Positions 1,420-62,891 of a DNA stretch of 64,000 nucleotides are shown here, piece after piece. Under the pieces are notes generated by a model. The model was not told where the DNA came from. It saw nothing but the letters and a program-made list of their open reading frames with translations, and did no database searches. A program made the translations under genes and the position numbers. Position 1 is the stretch's first letter. Each line of letters opens with the position of its first letter. The DNA is from an uncultured Erythrobacter sp. (GTDB taxonomy: Bacteria; Pseudomonadota; Alphaproteobacteria; Sphingomonadales; Sphingomonadaceae), in assembly GCA_913055155.1 (NCBI GenBank), contig CAJXJR010000012.1, positions 62,001 through 126,000 of the forward strand. The letters are read 5' to 3'.

Positions 1420-4086
1420 TCAGGCCGTCGCGCCTTCCAGTGCTGCCCGCACGGCAACCAAGGCATCGTCGGCCTTGTCGCCTTCGGGACCACCGCCCTG
1501 GGCCATGTCCGGGCGGCCACCGCCGCCCTTCCCGCCCAGTGCCTGCACACCCGCGCGCACGAGGTCGACGGCGCTGATGCGATCCGTCAGGTCGTCGGTC
1601 ACACCGACGGCGAAGGCGGCCTTGCCGTCATTCACCGCACAGATCGCCGCGACGCCAGAGCCCATCCGGCCCTTGGCTTCGTCCAGCAGGCCACGCAGTT
1701 CCTTGGGATTCATGCCCTGCAGAACCTGGCCGGAGAACTTCACCCCGCCAATCTCTTCGTCGGCCTGCGGCGCACCGCCACCGCCACCGCCCAGCGCAAG
1801 CTGCTTCTTCGCTTCGGCCAGCTCGCGCTCCAGCGCCTTGCGTTCGTCGACCAGCGCGGCGACACGGGCTTCGACTTCGTCAGGCGCGGTCTTCAGTGTT
1901 GCGGCGACGGATTTCAGCGCCTCCTCGCGGCCCACGATCCATTGCCGCGCGGCCTCGCCGGTCAGCGCCTCGATACGGCGCACACCCGATGATACCGCAC
2001 TTTCGGAGATAATGCGAAACAGGCCGATATCGCCGGTGGCGCGCACGTGGGTACCGCCGCACAGCTCGACCGAAAAATTACGGCCCGAACCCTGCCAGTC
2101 AGGGCGCCCCATCGACAGGACGCGCACTTCCTCACCGTACTTTTCGCCGAACAGCGCCATGGCGCCTGCCTCGATCGCATCGTCGGGGCTCATCAGCTGC
2201 GTGCGCACCTCTTCGTTGGCCCGGATCTCGGCGTTCACCTCGGCTTCGATCGCGGCAATCTCTTCCGGCGCGAGCGGCTTGGGATGAGAGAAGTCGAACC
2301 GCAGGCGATCTTCGGCCACCAGCGATCCCTTCTGCGTGACATGCTCGCCCAGGTGATTGCGCAGGGCCGCATGGACCAGGTGCGTGGCCGAGTGGTTGGC
2401 GCGGATCTTGTCGCGACGCTCAGCGTCCACCTTCAGATGCACGGTATCGCCAACCGCGATGGTGCCGGACGTAATCTTGCCGTGGTGCGCGTGCAGGCGG
2501 CCAAGCGGCTTGGACGTATCGGAAACGGCGATCCCGAGGCGATGATCGCCCGTGATCGTGCCGGCATCGCCGGTCTGGCCGCCGCTTTCGCCGTAGAACG
2601 GGGTCTGGTTGGTGAGCACGGTCACCTCCTGACCGGCATCGGCGCGGTCGACTTCCTTGCCGTCGATCACCAGCGCCACAACCCGGCCCTCGCCTTCGGT
2701 GGAGGTGTAGCCGGTGAATTCGGTGGCGCCTTCGCGCTCGGCAATGTCGAACCACACTTCGCTGTCGGCAGAGGCGCCGGAGCCTTTCCACGCAGCGCGC
2801 GCCGCAGCCTTCTGCTGCGCCATCGCGGCATCGAAGCCGTCCTTTTCGACACCGATGCCGCGGTTACGCAGGGCATCCTCGGTCAGGTCGTAAGGGAAGC
2901 CGTAGGTATCGTAGAGCTTGAAGGCGGTTTCACCCGGCAGGCTGTCACCCTCGCCCAGGTTGGCGGCTTCCTCGTCCAGCAGGCAAAGGCCCTTCTCCAG
3001 CGTCTGGCGGAAGCGGCTTTCCTCACGCTCCAGCACTTCGCCGATGAGCGCCTGCGCGCGGCCAAGGTCGGGATAGGCCTGCCCCATTTCGCTCACCAGC
3101 GTGGGCACCAGGCGGTGCATCAGCGGCTTGCCCGCACCCAGCAGGTGCGCGTGCCGCATGGCGCGGCGCATGATCCGGCGCAGGACGTATCCGCGCCCTT
3201 CGTTGGATGGCAGCACGCCGTCCGCGATCAGGAAGCTGGTGGAGCGAAGATGGTCTGCAATCACCCGGTGGCTGGCCAGCGCGTTGCCTTCGGCGCGGGC
3301 GCCGGAAAGGTCTTCGCTGGCAGCGATGATCGTGCGGAAGGTATCGGTATCGAAGACGTTGTGCACGCCCTGCATGACGGTGGAGATGCGCTCCAGCCCC
3401 ATGCCGGTATCGATGCTGGGGCGCGGCAGGTTGCCCACGATCTCGTCGGCCTCCTGCATGTGCTGCATGAACACCAGGTTCCAGATCTCGACGAAACGGT
3501 CGCCATCCTCCTCGGGCGAGCCCGGCGGGCCACCGGCGACATCGGGGCCATGGTCCCAGAAGATTTCCGAGCAAGGGCCGCAGGGACCGTCCGATCCCAT
3601 GGCCCAGAAGTTGTCCTTGGTGGCGATGCGGATGATGCGATCTTCCGGCAGGCCGGCAATGCGCTTCCACAGGTCGAAAGCTTCATCGTCGGTGTGGTAG
3701 ACCGTGGCCGTCAACCGGTTGGGATCTAGGCCGAACTCCTTGGTGACCATCGTCCAGGCGAGTTCAATCGCGCGTTCCTTGAAATAGTCGCCGAAGCTGA
3801 AGTTGCCGAGCATTTCGAAGAATGTCAGGTGTCGCGCTGTATAGCCGACGTTATCAAGGTCGTTGTGCTTCCCCCCGGCCCGCACGCACTTCTGGCTGCT
3901 GGCAGCCCGCGGCGCGGGCGGTGTCTCGACGCCGGTGAACACGTTCTTGAACGGCACCATGCCCGCATTGACGAACATCAGCGACGGATCGTTGTACGGC
4001 ACCAGCGGGGCCGACGGTACCACTTGGTGATCGTTGGCCGCGAAGAAATCCAGGAAGGTGCGGCGGATATCGTTGGTCGAAGTCAT
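1420..4086 (-). CDS. alaS: Alanine--tRNA ligase
   Basis: This class II synthetase charges tRNA-Ala in the cytosol. The 888-residue length matches the bacterial family (E. coli about 876). The N-terminal catalytic domain starts [15 protein letters not shown] and contains the motif [19 protein letters not shown]. The editing domain has the zinc-binding HSATHLVH near residue 564 and CGGTHV near residue 675. The C-terminal C-Ala/DHHA1 part includes a glycine run (GGGGGG) and ends near a [14 protein letters not shown] motif. I start at 4086 because homologues begin at this Met; the frame stays open upstream for 43 codons that look non-coding. No good Shine-Dalgarno is visible. It is convergent with the 55-residue gene. 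Confidence 0.97.
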
Positions 4087-41408: not shown

Positions 41409-41477
41409 AGCCGGTTTGCGGTAACCCGATTGCGCTGCTAACCGCCGCCGCGCAATTTGTGTGAACGGGATTCGCCC

Positions 41478-42692
41478 ATGTCTGAAATCAAACGAGTCGT
41501 CCTCGCCTATTCCGGCGGGCTGGATACCAGCGTCATCGCCAAGTGGCTGGAAAGCGAGCGCGGCCTCGAAGTCGTCACTTTCACCGCCGACCTTGGGCAG
41601 GGCGAGGAGATCGAGCCAGCCCGCACCAAGGCGCGCGCCATGGGTATCCCCGACAAGCACATCTATATCGAGGATCTGCGCGAGGAATTCGTGCGCGACT
41701 TCGTGTTCCCGATGATGCGCGCCAATGCCCGCTACGAGGGCGACTACCTGCTCGGCACCTCGATCGCGCGCCCGCTGATCTCCAAACGGCTGGTGGAGAT
41801 CGCGCACGAGACCGGTGCCGATGCCATCGCCCACGGCGCCACCGGCAAGGGCAACGATCAGGTGCGCTTCGAACTGTCCGCCTATGCGCTCGACCCCGAT
41901 ATCAAGGTGATCGCCCCCTGGCGCGAGTGGGACCTGACCAGCCGCACCGCGCTGATCGAATGGGCCGAGGCGCACCAGATCCAGGTACCCAAGGACAAGC
42001 GCGGCGAAAGCCCCTTCTCCACCGACGCCAACCTGCTCCACACCTCGTCCGAGGGCAAGGTGCTGGAAGATCCGTGGCAGGAGACGCCCGACTACGTCTA
42101 TTCGCGCACGGTCAACCCGGAGGATGCGCCGGACGAGCCGGAATACATCGAGATCGGCTTCGAGAAAGGCGACGGCGTGTCGCTCAATGGCGAGGCGATG
42201 AGCCCGGCCACCCTGCTCACCGCGCTCAACGAGCTGGGCCGCAAGCACGGCATCGGCCGGCTGGACCTCGTCGAAAACCGCTTCGTCGGCATGAAGAGCC
42301 GCGGCATGTACGAAACGCCGGGCGGCGAGATCTACGCCCGCGCCCATCGCGGGATCGAACAGATCACCCTCGACCGCGGCGCCGCGCACCTGAAGGACGA
42401 GCTGATGCCGCGCTATGCCGAGCTCATCTACAACGGCTTCTGGTTCTCTCCCGAGCGCGAGATGCTGCAGGCGGCCATCGACCTTTCCCAGGAGAAGGTG
42501 AACGGCACCGTCCGGCTGAAGCTGTACAAGGGCCAGGCCGGCGTGGTCGGCCGCAAGTCGCCGAACTCGCTCTATTCCGAAGCGCACGTCACCTTCGAGG
42601 ACGATGCCGGCGCTTACGACCAGGCCGATGCCGCGGGTTTCATCAAGCTCAACGCCCTGCGCCTGCGCCTGCTGGCGAAGCGCGACAGCTGA
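41478..42692 (+). CDS. argG: Argininosuccinate synthase
   Basis: ArgG joins citrulline and aspartate with ATP in arginine synthesis. The 404-residue protein has the N-type ATP pyrophosphatase motif AYSGGLDTS near residues 10-18, the TADLGQGEE and [10 protein letters not shown] segments, [14 protein letters not shown], and the C-terminal [22 protein letters not shown]. The start ATG at 41478 agrees with homologues; the frame is open 7 codons upstream. An unusual 827-bp stretch without a clear gene follows. Confidence 0.97.
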
Positions 42693-42794
42693 AAAGCGCC
42701 CCCAACAAGCACCGGCAAACCATTGTGCACATGCGGCAATTTCGTCACATCCATGCTGCAATGGCGAGATAGTTTCACCCTTTGCGGCAGGCCG

Positions 42795-42823
42795 TTGACT
42801 TATCCACCCTTGTCCACTGGCAT
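42795..42823 (+). promoter_or_regulatory. Possible promoter of the structured-RNA candidate
   Basis: A good -35 element TTGACT (42795-42800) is followed after 17 bp by TGGCAT, a weak -10. A start near 42830 would place the first nucleotides just in front of the long-range helix of the RNA candidate. The TTGACT also belongs to a 14-bp dyad (42794-42807 with 42835-42848). Confidence 0.35.
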
Positions 42824-42829
42824 TTCGCC

Positions 42830-43370
42830 ACAAAGTGGATAAGTCGACGCTCGCGCCCTTGCCCGACTCGGCCAACCCGCGCATTCTTCAGACATCGAGA
42901 GCGAAAACGGATCGCTTCCCTGGATCGCCTGCCGAGACAGGAAAGTCGAAAACCGAGACGAACTCGACGCGATGACAGCAAGATCGCGGAGTAGGAAAGG
43001 CAAGACAGCCCCCTCGGGGAATGACGAGCCGGACTGTTGAGACCGCGAAGGAACTGACATCGGTTGGTCGGAGCGATGAGCCCCGGCGTCGATGGGAAGA
43101 AGCGCAGCTTGCTGCGTGGTCGAACCGCTCGAGACGCCAAGGTTACAGCCCCGGCTGCGGACAGGCCGCCAGACCTGTCGGGACCGGCCTTCGGGCCCCC
43201 TGATGTGTCCAGGCACCGGTTCGGCACCGGCGCGAGCGCCGGGCGACTTATCCGGATGGCCAAACCCTTCGGGGGGCGGAACAGAAGGAGACACGCCAGG
43301 CGATAAGCGTTTCTTCGGAAACCCACCGCCGGTGAGAGTGGGGTCGGTAGCAATACCGACCCCATTTTTC
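42830..43370 (+). ncRNA. Candidate large structured non-coding RNA between argG and rlpA
   Basis: No credible protein gene fills this region. Two collinear blocks pair exactly over about 400 nt: 42837-42846 (GGATAAGTCG) with 43244-43253, and 42848-42857 (CGCTCGCGCC) with 43229-43238, with a further 4 bp at 42860-42863/43223-43226, so the ends form one long closing helix. Inside are many local stems joined by purine-rich linkers (for example 43085-43090 with 43133-43138, and 43058-43062 with 43074-43078). Three C(TTCG)G tetraloop hairpins occur at 43186-43197, 43265-43274 and 43309-43322, and a perfect intrinsic terminator ends it. It lacks RNase P, tmRNA, SRP and 6S hallmarks that I know. Strand and ends are inferred. 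Confidence 0.55.
43339..43369 (+). terminator. Very strong intrinsic terminator ending the RNA candidate
   Basis: A perfect 11-bp stem (TGGGGTCGGTA, 43339-43349, with 43354-43364) closed by a GCAA tetraloop is followed by TTTTT. It is about 650 bp past argG, so it most likely ends a separate transcript. Confidence 0.9.
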
Positions 43371-43519
43371 GTATGGGCGCCGCCCTTTCGCATCGCCTCC
43401 GGACCCGTTCCGCATTTCATCGCGTTTTCCTGTCATTTTGCGCCGGATCGCTCCGCCTTCGCGCCGATATCCACCGCCGGATTGGCCGTTTTTGCCGTTT
43501 TGCGGTAAGAGCGGGCTCC

Positions 43520-44098
43520 ATGACCGGGATCGAATTCCCTCGCGCCGTCACGCGCTGGCTGGCCCCTGCCGCTGCCCTGGCCCTGCTTGGCGGGAGCGGT
43601 GCGGGCCTGGCGCAGGATGCGCAGGACATGCGCGCCGACTATGCCGCCAACCGCGCGGCAGAGCCCGAAGGCCCCGCCTTCCAGCCCAGCACGCAGGCCC
43701 AGTTCGAAGCCGCCTTCGCCGCCTATGCCGAGCCGGTAGCGCCCGCCCTGCCCGATCACGCAGTGGACATCACCACGATCGAGCCTGCCGAACCCGCCGC
43801 CACCCCGCTGGGCCCGGGCGTTGCCAGCTATTACGGCCGCCGCTTCCACGGCCGCCGCACCGCCAATGGAGAGCGGTTCGACATGAACGCGCTCACCGCC
43901 GCGCACAAGACGCTGCCCTTCGGCAGCCGCGTGCGGGTGACCAACCCGCGCAATGGACGATCCGTCGTGGTGCGCATCAACGATCGCGGGCCCTTCGTGC
44001 GCGGACGGCATATCGACCTGTCGCGCGCCGCCGCCGAACAGATCGGCATCATCCGCTCCGGCCACGGCACGGTGGAGCTGGAACTGCTGGAGAGCTAG
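43520..44098 (+). CDS. rlpA: Septal ring lytic transglycosylase RlpA family protein
   Basis: The 192-residue protein has a signal peptide (cut near GAGLAQ), a Pro/Ala-rich linker, and the RlpA double-psi beta-barrel: [39 protein letters not shown], then [28 protein letters not shown] with the active-site Asp in NDRGPF. RlpA cleaves peptide-free glycan strands during cell separation. There is no C-terminal SPOR domain, so septal targeting is not evident. It overlaps the convergent 44095-44889 gene by 4 bp. Confidence 0.9.
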
Positions 44099-45023: not shown

Positions 45024-45236
45024 ATGGAACCGCTCCAGATTCTTGGCAAGAACATTAGGCGATTGCGTCTAGCAAAAGGCTTTTCACAGGAAGAGTTCGC
45101 CCTTACCGCAGACATTGACAGGTCATACGTCGGACAAGTCGAACGAGGGCGACGCAATATAGCCTTTGAGAACATCTTGAAAATTGCCCGACCCCTCGAT
45201 GTCTCTGTCTCTCAGTTGGTGGAGGGCATTCGGTGA
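45024..45236 (+). CDS. XRE-type HTH controller protein of a restriction-modification system
   Basis: The 70-residue protein is a single HTH_3 domain (NIRRLRLAKGFSQEEFALTADIDRSYVGQVERGRRNIAFENILKIARPL) of the size and pattern of C proteins that control type II systems. These dimers first activate and then limit the restriction gene, delaying it until the host is methylated. The stop overlaps the GTG of the endonuclease gene (GTGA). No ribosome site is clear, as is common for leaderless C genes. The region is AT-richer than the host sequence. Confidence 0.75.
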   Translation: MEPLQILGKNIRRLRLAKGFSQEEFALTADIDRSYVGQVERGRRNIAFENILKIARPLDVSVSQLVEGIR

Positions 45237-46082
45237 AGGCCAATCCACTCTTTGCGAAACAAGACCTCGGTTTTTGGGCGATGGTGAAGTTCGTTTCTGA
45301 ACGTGCGGTATACACCAACATGAAGACCAAGAAGAACCCCGTTTCGACCCTGAAGGCTTTGACTCCCGACGAGGTACGAGGGACGTTGGAGAAATGCGAT
45401 ATCGATCAAGAGTCGATCTCAAACCAGCAATGCAAACTGGTAAGTGATTACCTGAAATATCGTGCCGAGACGCTGACGACTAAGGTCGAGCCGGTCCTGA
45501 TGAACCGCGACGAAGCACGCGCATTCTTCGAAGAGATCAAGGAGCGCGTTAAACCGATCCATCCTATCCCAATGAATCGCCAGAAGGGCGAAAAGCGCCA
45601 TGAGGCCTATCTTGCAGCAATGGTCGGGATGCTTGCCGAAGAAGCCGTGGGTGCAGAGAATTTGGTAAATGACTCACAGAAGCTCGCCATCCTGACAGAG
45701 AATGGGACGTTGAAAGGTATCTTTTTCACGCCGTTTTGATGGAGCAATACCCGACACTCGCGATCCGATCGCCATCTGGGAGATCAAGGAATACTACGGC
45801 ACAACCTCCTTCGGCAGCCGTGTTGCCGATGGTGTCTACGAGACGCTCCTAGATGGTTATGAGATAAACACCTTTGAAGCTGCCTTCGGCCGCCGCATCG
45901 CGCATTACCTCTTCGTCGACGATCGATTTACATGGTGGGAATGCGGAAAATCATATCTGTGCCGCCTAATTGACATGCTCCATACTGGACATGTCGATGA
46001 GATCTTCTTTGGTCGCCAAGTTATCGACCAGTGGCCGCAAACTCTTGCCGAACTCCAAAAAGATCCAGTTCTTGCGGGGTAA
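45233..46082 (+). pseudogene. Type II restriction endonuclease, frameshifted at a T5 run
   Basis: The first frame (GTG at 45233) runs to a TGA at 45737-45739. Removing one T from the five-T run at 45722-45726 joins it to a second frame that continues ...RRFDGAIPDTRDPIAIWEIKEYYGTTSFGSRVADGVYETLLDGYE... to a TAA at 46080-46082, giving about 282 residues. The joined part has a PD-(D/E)XK-like pattern (Asp then IWEIKEYY), expected for the nuclease core. The gene overlaps the controller gene upstream and the convergent methylase downstream. It is either a real inactivating mutation, a phase-variable site, or a sequencing error. Specificity is unknown. Confidence 0.75.
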
Positions 46083-46909
46083 CATCGTGTGAAAGGAGCA
46101 ACCGATCTTTTACGTGTTCATCCACCACGTCACCTCCTCCACGCCAGAAACGTTTTAGCATCGAGCCGCCAAGTTTGAGATAGGCCTCAACCTCGAAAAG
46201 GTCTTGCGGCGGCATAATGCTAATCACTTTGCCACCGGACCTCTTCATGCCGTCAATTGATAGAGCAATGAAGGCTCCTCGGGCCTTTGCATCTCTCAAG
46301 TGTCCGCACATCTCGGCAAAATCAAACGCTTGTGCCCCATAAAGAATCTTCTGCGTATCGACGTGAGGAGGATCGCAATAGACGATATCGTCCTCACCAG
46401 CTTCGGCAACAATCTCCGAATAGTCGGCTTTGACGAAGACAGTCTCGCTTACAAGGTCGCGCCAGACTGCAAGGCGCTTTGCAAACGTCGAAGGATGGAT
46501 GATTTTGTGCGGACCAATCGGAGTGCTCAGGTAACCGTCTCGTCTAAAACGGATGACCCCACCATAGCAGGATCTTGAAATAAATAAGAAATCGTGAGGG
46601 CTCTGGCGCTCATTGAAGCGATCCTTGGCCCTATCGTAGGCAACTTGCCGATCTTCCTGATAGGCTTCCCAATTGGCCGTGTAACTCTCGACAAGCGATT
46701 GAGGATCAGTCTGCACCAGCTTCCATAGGTCGACTAGTGGAGCGCATGCGTCGGATGCGACAGAACGGTGGGGGGGCAAGCCTCCCCAGAACCGCGCCAG
46801 AGCCAAAGAATGGTTCGAAATATGTCCGATATTCTCTGGGAAACGATTGGACTATCCGATCCGCAGATCGGTACTTGTTGCCGATATATTTGAAGAGCGG
46901 CTGTGGCAT
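46021..46909 (-). pseudogene. D12-class adenine-N6 DNA methyltransferase, frameshifted at a C7 run
   Basis: The N-terminal frame from ATG 46909 reads MPQPLFKYIGNKYRSADRIV and contains motif I (YFEPFFGSGAV), but turns to nonsense after RLAP. Deleting one base of the seven-base homopolymer at 46770-46776 restores ...APHRSVASDACAPLVDLWKLV, the body of the enzyme, with motif IV VYCDPPH. The repaired protein has about 295 residues and is Dam-like. It should protect the sites of the adjacent endonuclease. The last 62 bp overlap the endonuclease end on the opposite strand. As with the endonuclease, the shift may be real or an error. Confidence 0.75.
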
Positions 46910-62495: not shown

Positions 62496-62589
62496 CAGAA
62501 GCGAACTTGTCGCCAATGACGGAGGGAGCGCCGCAACTGGCGCTCTCCCGCATGCGTCCGGTACACCCCGCCCGGCAGCAAAAGCGACC

Positions 62590-62745
62590 ATCGCAGGCAG
62601 GTCTCCTGGCTCCCGGATCGTCGCGCCCTGCCCGCCTTCCCGCTTAACGCAGTGGCATGTGGACAGTTTGCTCCCCGGTCACAGTTGCGGGGGCAGCGGA
62701 GGTCTTGCACCTCCTTCCCTCTTAGGCTCGCTCTCACGAACAACC
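62590..62745 (-). promoter_or_regulatory. Cobalamin (AdoCbl) riboswitch controlling the btu operon
   Basis: On the minus strand the B12 box AGCCAGGAGACCTGCCTGC is at 62593-62611. Upstream core elements are GGTGCAAGACCTCC, GCAACTGTGACCGGGGAGC and GCCACTG, in the order seen in cobalamin riboswitches. It lies about 95 bp before btuB and should lower its expression when B12 is plentiful. Confidence 0.95.
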
Positions 62746-62891
62746 CGTGACGTCGCCGCCGCCATATGCCCCGCACTGCCGCGGCGCAAGCGCAGCGACG
62801 CATGGTTAACGGCTCGGTAAGCGCCGTCCCGCGGTGAGACGACCGCGCCAGCACGGATGATTGCGCAAGCTGTTCGCCCTAGACGGGATGC

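What the first reader, a model, noticed from the sequence alone, without database searches (positions are those of the whole stretch)
42693..43519. Possible undescribed large structured RNA between argG and rlpA
The sequence shows two exact, collinear 10-bp complementary blocks (42837-42846/43244-43253 and 42848-42857/43229-43238) closing a domain of about 400 nt, many internal stems with purine-rich joints, three C(TTCG)G tetraloop hairpins and a perfect GCAA-loop terminator with T5. A TTGACT box lies just upstream. Adjacent exact blocks in the right order are unlikely by chance. I do not recognise RNase P, tmRNA, SRP, 6S or a group I/II intron in it.
Basis: partly seen in the sequence, partly recalled or inferred. 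Interest (0 to 1): 0.85.

Follow-up and report, generated by a model that had tools for sequence, protein, structure and literature searches.

The report
Structured RNA with cell-cycle-type promoter
Between two ordinary genes, many bacteria of the family Erythrobacteraceae appear to carry a roughly 480-letter folded RNA gene that matched no catalogued RNA family, with a promoter that looks like those switched on by the chromosome-replication cycle, so it could be a new replication-timed RNA.

Summary
In 157 distinct homologues (argG directly upstream in 154), compensatory changes are clear: 15 of 107 and 24 of 129 tested pairs are significant in two subgroups. Rfam has no match at gathering score.

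Its 5' arm, the 5' hairpin and the TTGACT box lie upstream of the RNA, in a promoter region: three TTWTCCAC/TCCAC boxes resembling DnaA boxes, then TTG-N17-CANYYT with TTG, A and T almost invariant. A GANTC methylation site lies in the promoter spacer of 129 of 157 homologues.

The inferred RNA is 42894-43369, about 476 nt. The promoter resembles DnaA/CcrM-GcrA cell-cycle promoters of Caulobacter (PMC4287350, passages). Some close relatives lack RNA and boxes together, so the unit is dispensable.

Best reading: a replication-timed, free-standing structured RNA acting in trans. Shown: conservation, covariation, promoter pattern. Inferred: transcription, timing, trans action. Target unknown.

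The parts
41457..42692 (+). argG (argininosuccinate synthase), upstream neighbour
   Evidence: Pfam Arginosuc_synth / Arginosuc_syn_C; found in 154 of 157 homologous loci, on the same strand in all 154, ending an estimated 6-189 nt before the aligned block, which begins near 42792
42800..42807 (+). box 1, TTWTCCAC, DnaA-box-like (about -94 to -87)
   Evidence: exact TTWTCCAC in 133 of 157; G at the third position in 17
42812..42818 (+). box 2, TCCAC/TCCACA, DnaA-box-like (about -82 to -76)
   Evidence: TCCAC in 156 of 157, TCCACA in 94 of 157; window copy is GTCCACT
42835..42842 (-). box 3, TTWTCCAC on the minus strand, DnaA-box-like (about -59 to -52)
   Evidence: 155 of 157; distance to the -35 constant in 150 of 157, 11 bp shorter in 6, 1 bp longer in 1; short form needs two changes on the tree
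42859..42864 (+). -35 hexamer TTGCCC
   Evidence: T 157, T 154, G 157 of 157
42865..42869 (+). GANTC (CcrM-type methylation site) in the promoter spacer
   Evidence: GANTC within 42862-42881 in 129 of 157; six control patterns 1 to 23 of 157; 1.6% of window 20-mers; YGAKTCK on one strand in 112 of 157
42882..42887 (+). -10 hexamer CATTCT
   Evidence: C, A and T at positions 1, 2 and 6 in 157 of 157; spacer 17 nt in 156 of 157
42894..43369 (+). structured non-coding RNA, about 476 nt, inferred start A42894
   Evidence: purine at 42894 in 156 of 157, with 6 nt between -10 and 42894 in 157 of 157; covariation; conservation ends just after 43369
42895..42967 (+). first domain: helices 42895-42898/42964-42967 and 42901-42910/42952-42961
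   Evidence: 1 significant pair in the first and 3 in the second (restricted test)
42970..43062 (+). second domain: helices 42970-42977/43055-43062 and 42985-42994/43038-43047
   Evidence: 5 of 8 and 3 of 10 pairs significant; pair 42973-43059 in the global list of subgroup A; the inner helix is only 61% paired in subgroup A, 82% in B
43067..43156 (+). third domain: helices 43067-43072/43151-43156 and 43080-43090/43133-43142
   Evidence: 2 pairs significant in the inner helix, none in the outer
43183..43197 (+). short hairpin
   Evidence: 2 of 4 pairs significant; 62% paired in subgroup A, 88% in B
43225..43334 (+). most conserved 3' domain: 43225-43234/43325-43334, 43236-43244/43294-43303, hairpin 43307-43314/43317-43323
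   Evidence: the tested parts of the first two helices are 79-99% paired in both subgroups against 16-38% when slid; they vary little, so covariation says little there; hairpin with 4 significant pairs
43336..43367 (+). 3'-terminal hairpin, terminator-like (GCAA loop here, then ATTTTT)
   Evidence: 99.8% of cells paired in both subgroups; 2 significant pairs; U-tract short in many of subgroup B
43520..44098 (+). rlpA-like gene (DPBB_1, lytic transglycolase family), downstream neighbour
   Evidence: Pfam DPBB_1, 99.5 bits; found in 149 of 157 loci, same strand in 148

Best explanation
The stretch 42800-43369 is one genetic unit: a promoter with upstream regulatory boxes driving a free-standing, about 476-nt, multi-domain non-coding RNA that ends in a terminator-like hairpin. 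Sigma-70-type RNA polymerase starts at about A42894 from TTGCCC-N17-CATTCT. Three DnaA-box-like sites lie at about -94 to -52. A GANTC site in the spacer would let DnaA and the CcrM/GcrA methylation switch restrict synthesis to the period around replication. The RNA folds into covarying domains plus a highly conserved 3' core. It most likely acts in trans, as a regulator or RNP scaffold tied to the replication/division cycle. Shown: conservation, covariation, promoter-pattern conservation, GANTC and box conservation, presence of GcrA and of a CcrM-type RAMA domain. Inferred: that it is transcribed, which proteins bind the boxes, cell-cycle timing, trans action, and any target.
For: Covariation: with structures predicted without covariation terms, 15 of 107 pairs (44 sequences) and 24 of 129 pairs (113 sequences) pass a tree-based null. 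In the global test, all 16 pairs listed with E up to 0.5 (4 + 12) lie in the structures predicted with covariation terms, which contain 107 of those 107 and 128 of those 129 pairs. Consensus energy is -165.5 against -99.7 to -110.0, and -172.2 against -71.9 to -86.3, in 6 simulated alignments each. Promoter: in 42843-42899 the only columns above 97% conserved are TTG, the C, A and T of the -10, and the two bases after +1; the spacer is 17 nt in 156 of 157. Boxes: two arm positions vary independently (42799/42843: CG 56, GG 35, CC 31, GC 26; 42802/42840: AT 88, AA 43, GT 14), as protein sites would and a stem would not. The box-to-promoter distance is constant in 150 of 157, and about one helical turn (11 bp) shorter in 6. 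GANTC: in the spacer of 129 of 157 (control patterns at most 23), and depleted in the RNA body (0.2 per RNA, 1.6 in mononucleotide shuffles). GcrA and RAMA domains are present in 12 of 12 genomes tested. Caulobacter comparison (PMC4287350, passages): DnaA motifs CTCCACA at -82 of podJ P2, and ATCCACA and GTCCACA at -52 and -83 of mipZ P2; GANTC at -24 of podJ P2; GANTC between -10 and -35 going with activation at 40-60 min. Unit behaviour: behind argG of G346, G340, G019, G519 and G325 neither an RNA match nor a box was found.
Against: No expression data. The -10 (CANYYT) is far from TATAAT, and a mechanical E. coli-type scan of the region found neither promoter nor terminator. The DnaA identity is by resemblance only: box 1 has G at the W position in 17 of 157, and in 440 kb of G009 that include the lowest point of the skew sampled there (about 1.46 Mb) no cluster of more than two TTWTNCAC sites per 600 bp was found, so I could not show that the lineage's origin uses the same boxes. 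28 of 157 homologues lack GANTC in the spacer, and in 24 of 134 occurrences it lies further down the spacer than right behind the -35. PMC7987155 warns that an extended GANTC motif alone is a poor sign of GcrA control (passages), and PMC4287350 that only 31% of GcrA-enriched cell-cycle promoters have GANTC (passages). A separate cross-subgroup alignment of one domain (68 sequences) gave no RNAalifold structure at all; I attribute this to misalignment, which I did not prove. Two earlier covariation passes on poorer alignments were weaker. Some helices are poorly paired in one subgroup (61-63%). Dispensability argues against an essential cell-cycle role.
Confidence: 0.55

Rival explanations
1. 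Same free-standing structured RNA, but the promoter is an ordinary constitutive or otherwise regulated one: the boxes bind some other protein and the GANTC has no regulatory role.
For: The box protein is not identified; TTWTNCAC clusters were not seen in the sampled G009 origin region; 28 of 157 lack GANTC; box 1 has G instead of W in 17 of 157.
Against: Box 3 varies only between A and T at the W of the DnaA consensus TTWTNCACA (A/T in 157 of 157); box 2 variants GTCCACA, CTCCACA and ATCCACA are the DnaA motifs named for Caulobacter podJ and mipZ; GANTC is in the spacer of 129 of 157, in most directly behind or overlapping the end of the -35.
Confidence: 0.27
2. A long leader (attenuator) controlling rlpA: the RNA folds around the 3' hairpin and lets or stops read-through into rlpA.
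For: rlpA follows on the same strand in 148 of 149 loci where it was found.
Against: One locus (L037) has rlpA convergent; L090 and L147 have more than 5 kb downstream with no rlpA match; three relatives without the RNA keep an rlpA-like frame behind argG, read by eye in the printed sequence (L289, L295, L296); the 3' hairpin is 99.8% paired and I noticed no alternative anti-terminator, though I ran no search for one.
Confidence: 0.08
3. A 3' untranslated element of argG mRNA, processed or stabilising, without its own promoter.
For: argG is upstream on the same strand in 154 of 154 loci where it was found, ending an estimated 6-189 nt before the aligned block.
Against: Promoter-like columns TTG, A, T are almost invariant with fixed spacing, in a region that is otherwise variable; argG exists without the element in close relatives.
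Confidence: 0.06
4. A DNA element (replication origin or DnaA-titrating site) rather than an RNA.
For: Three DnaA-like boxes in 43 bp.
Against: In G009 the sampled cumulative skew has its minimum between about 1.34 and 1.48 Mb and its maximum between about 2.78 and 2.92 Mb; the RNA lies at 2.44 Mb; base-pair covariation over the following 476 nt.
Confidence: 0.02

Closest known systems
CcnA, cell-cycle non-coding RNA of Caulobacter crescentus (PMC8959179; passages read)
   Same: An alphaproteobacterial non-coding RNA whose synthesis follows the cell cycle (here only inferred from the promoter).
   Different: CcnA lies in the replication origin and is putatively activated by CtrA; this RNA is far from the origin in the one genome sampled (G009), with DnaA-like boxes and GANTC. 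No sequence or structure comparison between the two was made.
OLE, GOLLD and ROOL large ornate RNAs (PMC12286853; abstract and outline)
   Same: Several hundred nucleotides, multi-domain, conserved structure, no evident protein product.
   Different: This region has no Rfam match at gathering score; no hit in phage or plasmid collections at blastn sensitivity; different hosts.
podJ P2 / mipZ P2 promoters of Caulobacter (PMC4287350, passages; PMC3667746, passages)
   Same: Upstream DnaA motifs of the NTCCACA type at -52 to -83; GANTC at -24 of podJ P2; GAnTC in the mipZ promoter, bound by GcrA.
   Different: Those drive proteins of division and polarity; here the product is a structured RNA. 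Binding of DnaA, GcrA or CcrM is untested here.
CsrB/RsmZ-type GGA-rich sponge RNAs (recalled)
   Same: Many GGA motifs (18.6 per RNA, 14.2 in mononucleotide shuffles).
   Different: No CsrA in 12 of 12 genomes tested.

Membership tests
Any of 4227 Rfam 15 families | covariance-model score at or above gathering | tested here: not met
   only the cobalamin riboswitch elsewhere in the window; in the region four hits, all below gathering
RNase P RNA (type A) | RF00010 match | tested here: not met
   no match in the window; genome's copy is at C20
alpha tmRNA | RF01849 match | tested here: not met
   no match in the window; genome's copy is at C1
6S RNA | RF00013 match | tested here: not met
   no match in the window; the genome hit is at C3, 45.8 bits against a cut-off of 46.4
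CsrA-sponge RNAs | CsrA present in the host | tested here: not met
   0 of 12 genomes
Structured non-coding RNA (general kind) | compensatory base changes beyond phylogeny | tested here: met
   15 of 107 and 24 of 129 pairs, on another alignment, gave no structure
Structured non-coding RNA (general kind) | no conserved reading frame | tested here: met
   + strand only: the most shared start of an ORF of 35 aa or more occurs in 51 of 157, and it is the -35 TTG; the next in 12 of 157
Structured non-coding RNA (general kind) | discrete transcript | not testable with these tools
   no RNA-seq available
DnaA/CcrM-GcrA cell-cycle promoter | GANTC within the -35/-10 spacer | tested here: met
   129 of 157; present in the window
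DnaA/CcrM-GcrA cell-cycle promoter | DnaA-box-like sites upstream | tested here: met
   match to the motif only, not confirmed at an origin
DnaA/CcrM-GcrA cell-cycle promoter | GcrA and CcrM encoded by the host | tested here: met
   GcrA 12 of 12, RAMA domain 12 of 12; RAMA as the CcrM mark is recalled
DnaA/CcrM-GcrA cell-cycle promoter | binding and cell-cycle dependence | not testable with these tools
   needs ChIP, footprints or synchronised cells

The most novel reading that the evidence does not exclude
A new class of large structured bacterial RNA whose synthesis is gated by the replication initiator DnaA and by the methylation state of its own promoter, so that an ornate RNA or RNP is made once per replication round and acts on replication, segregation or division in Erythrobacteraceae and some related sphingomonads.
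Probability: 0.35. Interest if true: 0.88.

Novelty: new variant of a known kind. Interest (0 to 1): 0.7.

Why it matters
Large structured RNAs of bacteria are few and most lack a known function (general knowledge); each new class may hide a ribozyme, an RNP or an RNA-only assembly. Here the promoter offers a concrete handle on function, timing by DnaA and CcrM/GcrA. The patchy presence within one genus gives natural with-and-without pairs for genetics. If the timing holds, it adds a large RNA to the alphaproteobacterial cell-cycle circuit, where CcnA is the example I found.

Tried and rejected
Replication origin: rejected by sampled GC skew of G009. A strict TTATCCACA...TGTGGATAA pattern was in 0 of 8 genomes. 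CsrA sponge: GGA enrichment modest and CsrA absent in 12 of 12. TTGACT as -35: no conserved -10 at the right distance, and the two g110 genomes read have GGG, not TTGAC, before the TTATCCAC box. Conserved small protein on the + strand: rejected. Phage or plasmid origin: no blastn match. Wider spread by covariance model R1 of the 3' domain: by my count of the printed rows 95 of 346 genomes of the order score 66.4 bits or more, then there is a gap to 43.4 bits. I did not examine most of the lower hits; G423 (40.3 bits) is real because it sits behind argG and nhmmer agrees, and G532's copy behind argG was found only by nhmmer. Literature: searches (open-licence PMC only) showed no paper on this RNA in their listings; that does not prove it unpublished.

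Negative or weak results kept: weaker covariation on first alignments; no structure on a cross-subgroup short alignment; mechanical promoter/terminator scan empty; the rlpA reading used a wrong frame; repeated correctly. Rows dropped before counts: 14 loci without a full-length match (three of them the RNase P, tmRNA and 6S loci), then near-identical duplicates, leaving 157 of 224 full-length loci. L046 was left out of the 63-sequence set. A1 used 65 of 93 and A2 68 of 126 selected sequences. The two subgroups were split by a sequence motif of the 3' domain, not by the tree.

Full report
What is there. The region lies between argG (41457-42692) and an rlpA-like gene (43520-44098; DPBB_1), both on the + strand. 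The region folds better than shuffles (z -3.07, 0 of 20). Rfam 15 has no match here at gathering score; the four hits up to E 10 are all below gathering. RNase P, alpha tmRNA and a borderline 6S hit are elsewhere in the same genome.

Conservation. blastn found the element in 23 of 25 same-genus genomes (own included) and 0 of 16 others of the order, in 94 of 298 genomes and 33 of 96 genera of the GTDB family, and in 34 of 40 genomes of the genus. The 80 printed carry names such as Qipengyuania, Erythrobacter, Altererythrobacter, Croceibacterium, Aurantiacibacter, or MAGs named only to a higher rank. Two genera were checked as Erythrobacteraceae (Qipengyuania and Alteraurantiacibacter); for the rest I rely on recall. 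In 39 loci fetched around matches, 38 have the element behind argG, and rlpA was found in 37. Among 157 distinct full-length copies, argG was found in 154, always upstream on the same strand, ending an estimated 6-189 nt before the aligned block (which begins about 100 nt before the inferred RNA start). rlpA was found in 149, on the same strand in 148.

Patchiness. Of the six genus members without a blastn match, I examined four behind argG; G338 and G343 (84% and 86% complete) were not examined. Behind argG of 16 genomes, nhmmer found full or long copies in G423 and G532 (a different genus, g110), a shortened copy in G020, and none in 13 (two of these with marginal hits, E above 1). The 13 include G346, G340 and G019 of the same genus and G519 and G325 of g110. 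In those 13 the box patterns are missing too from the roughly 1.5 kb read behind argG. G020 keeps the boxes, a TTGCACCGACTC stretch and the 3' hairpin around a shorter middle. So the unit is dispensable and appears to come and go as a whole. The covariance model of the 3' domain scored 66.4 bits or more in 95 of 346 genomes of the order, then dropped to 43.4 bits.

RNA structure. I tested covariation with a G statistic (APC-corrected) against alignments simulated on the inferred tree. The first passes were weak or moderate. A restricted test on the joint structure supported several helices. Splitting the copies into two subgroups by a motif of the 3' domain and realigning gave the clearest result. 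With structures predicted without any covariation term, 15 of 107 pairs (44 sequences) and 24 of 129 pairs (113 sequences) are significant. All 16 pairs listed in the global test (E up to 0.5) lie in the structures predicted with covariation terms, which hold nearly the same pairs. Consensus energies are far below those of six simulated alignments each (-165.5 against -99.7 to -110.0; -172.2 against -71.9 to -86.3). Broadly the same order of domains appears in both subgroups, but 42985-42994/43038-43047 and 43183-43186/43194-43197 are only 61-62% paired in subgroup A, and the part 43085-43090/43133-43138 only 63% in B. A separate MAFFT alignment of one domain across both subgroups gave no structure, a negative result that I blame on misalignment but did not resolve.

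The long-range stem. It is exact in this genome and improbable by shuffling (0 of 2000). Pairing is 0.90 in six near relatives, 0.75 in one subgroup and 0.48 in the other; slid controls are 0.30-0.44. Its 3' side belongs to the best-conserved 3' domain and hardly varies, so no compensation can be seen. Its 5' side lies upstream of the inferred start. A lineage-specific alternative pairing in a longer transcript is not excluded, but the stem does not define the RNA.

Promoter. In 42843-42899 the only columns above 97% conserved are 42859-42861 (TTG), 42882, 42883 and 42887 (C, A and T of the -10) and 42895-42896. The spacer is 17 nt in 156 of 157; a purine stands at 42894 in 156 of 157, always with 6 nt between it and the -10. 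This is the conservation profile expected of a sigma-70-type promoter (established knowledge), although the -10 is not TATAAT-like and a simple consensus scan misses it. The RNA therefore most likely runs from 42894 to about 43369. Lengths in the homologues are 378-604 nt, median 497. The 3' hairpin has a short U-tract in many of subgroup B (CCCCATTTGC), so the 3' end may need more than intrinsic termination.

Upstream boxes. Three sites lie at about -94, -82 and -59: TTWTCCAC (133 of 157), TCCAC (156 of 157; TCCACA in 94) and TTWTCCAC inverted (155 of 157). What looked like a hairpin in one sequence behaves as independent sites: the S and W positions vary on each arm without matching the other. 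The distance from the last box to the -35 is constant in 150, 11 bp (about one helical turn) shorter in 6 and 1 bp longer in 1; the short form needs two changes on the tree. In g110 the order of the boxes differs. These fit DnaA boxes (TTWTNCACA, recalled; TTATCCACA in PMC8203912, passages), with box 1 carrying G at the W in 17 of 157. In Caulobacter, the DnaA motif CTCCACA is placed at -82 of podJ P2, and ATCCACA and GTCCACA at -52 and -83 of mipZ P2 (PMC4287350, passages). I could not confirm the motif at the origin of G009.

GANTC. 129 of 157 copies carry GANTC in the spacer stretch 42862-42881, against 1 to 23 of 157 for six control patterns and 1.6% of 20-mers in the window; the RNA bodies are depleted of it. 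Of 134 occurrences, 83 start right behind the -35 hexamer, 27 one base to either side, and 24 further down. In 112 of 157 it fits YGAKTCK on one strand, the extended motif given for GcrA in Caulobacter (PMC7987155, passages); the same paper warns that the motif alone is a poor sign of GcrA control but that its conservation across species could be one. In Caulobacter, promoters with GANTC between -10 and -35 switch on at 40-60 min of the cycle (PMC4287350, passages). GcrA and a RAMA-domain protein, taken as the CcrM mark (recalled), are in 12 of 12 genomes tested, including genomes without the RNA.

How it most likely works. DnaA, and GcrA through methylated GANTC, set the time of transcription; the RNA folds into its domains and acts in trans through its conserved 3' core on an unknown partner. 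Steps up to the promoter pattern are shown by comparison; regulation, transcription and function are inferred. Leader, 3'UTR and DNA-only models fit less well (see rivals). It is not a member of any tested family; it resembles large ornate RNAs in kind and CcnA in its inferred timing.

Noticed in passing
62579-62763 (-): Cobalamin riboswitch, 121.8 bits, the only Rfam match at gathering score in the window.
   Followed up: no
45024-45736 (+) and 46021-46909 (-): HTH_3 regulator followed by a DUF7690/DUF7687 protein, and a D12-class adenine methyltransferase whose two parts lie in different frames: perhaps a small restriction-modification locus with a broken methylase. Described only.
   Followed up: partly
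L290 (G020), 2754-3170: Shortened copy of the RNA that keeps the boxes, a GANTC and the 3' hairpin: a natural deletion variant.
   Followed up: partly
L293 and L294 (G423, G532): In two genomes of another genus a TGTCCAC box lies upstream of the TTATCCAC box instead of between the two strong boxes.
   Followed up: no
L037 (G131): The only locus of 149 where the rlpA-like gene is convergent to the RNA.
   Followed up: no
43361-43370 and relatives: The 3' hairpin's U-tract is short (CCCCATTTGC) in many of subgroup B although the hairpin itself is almost invariant, suggesting a role beyond termination.
   Followed up: no
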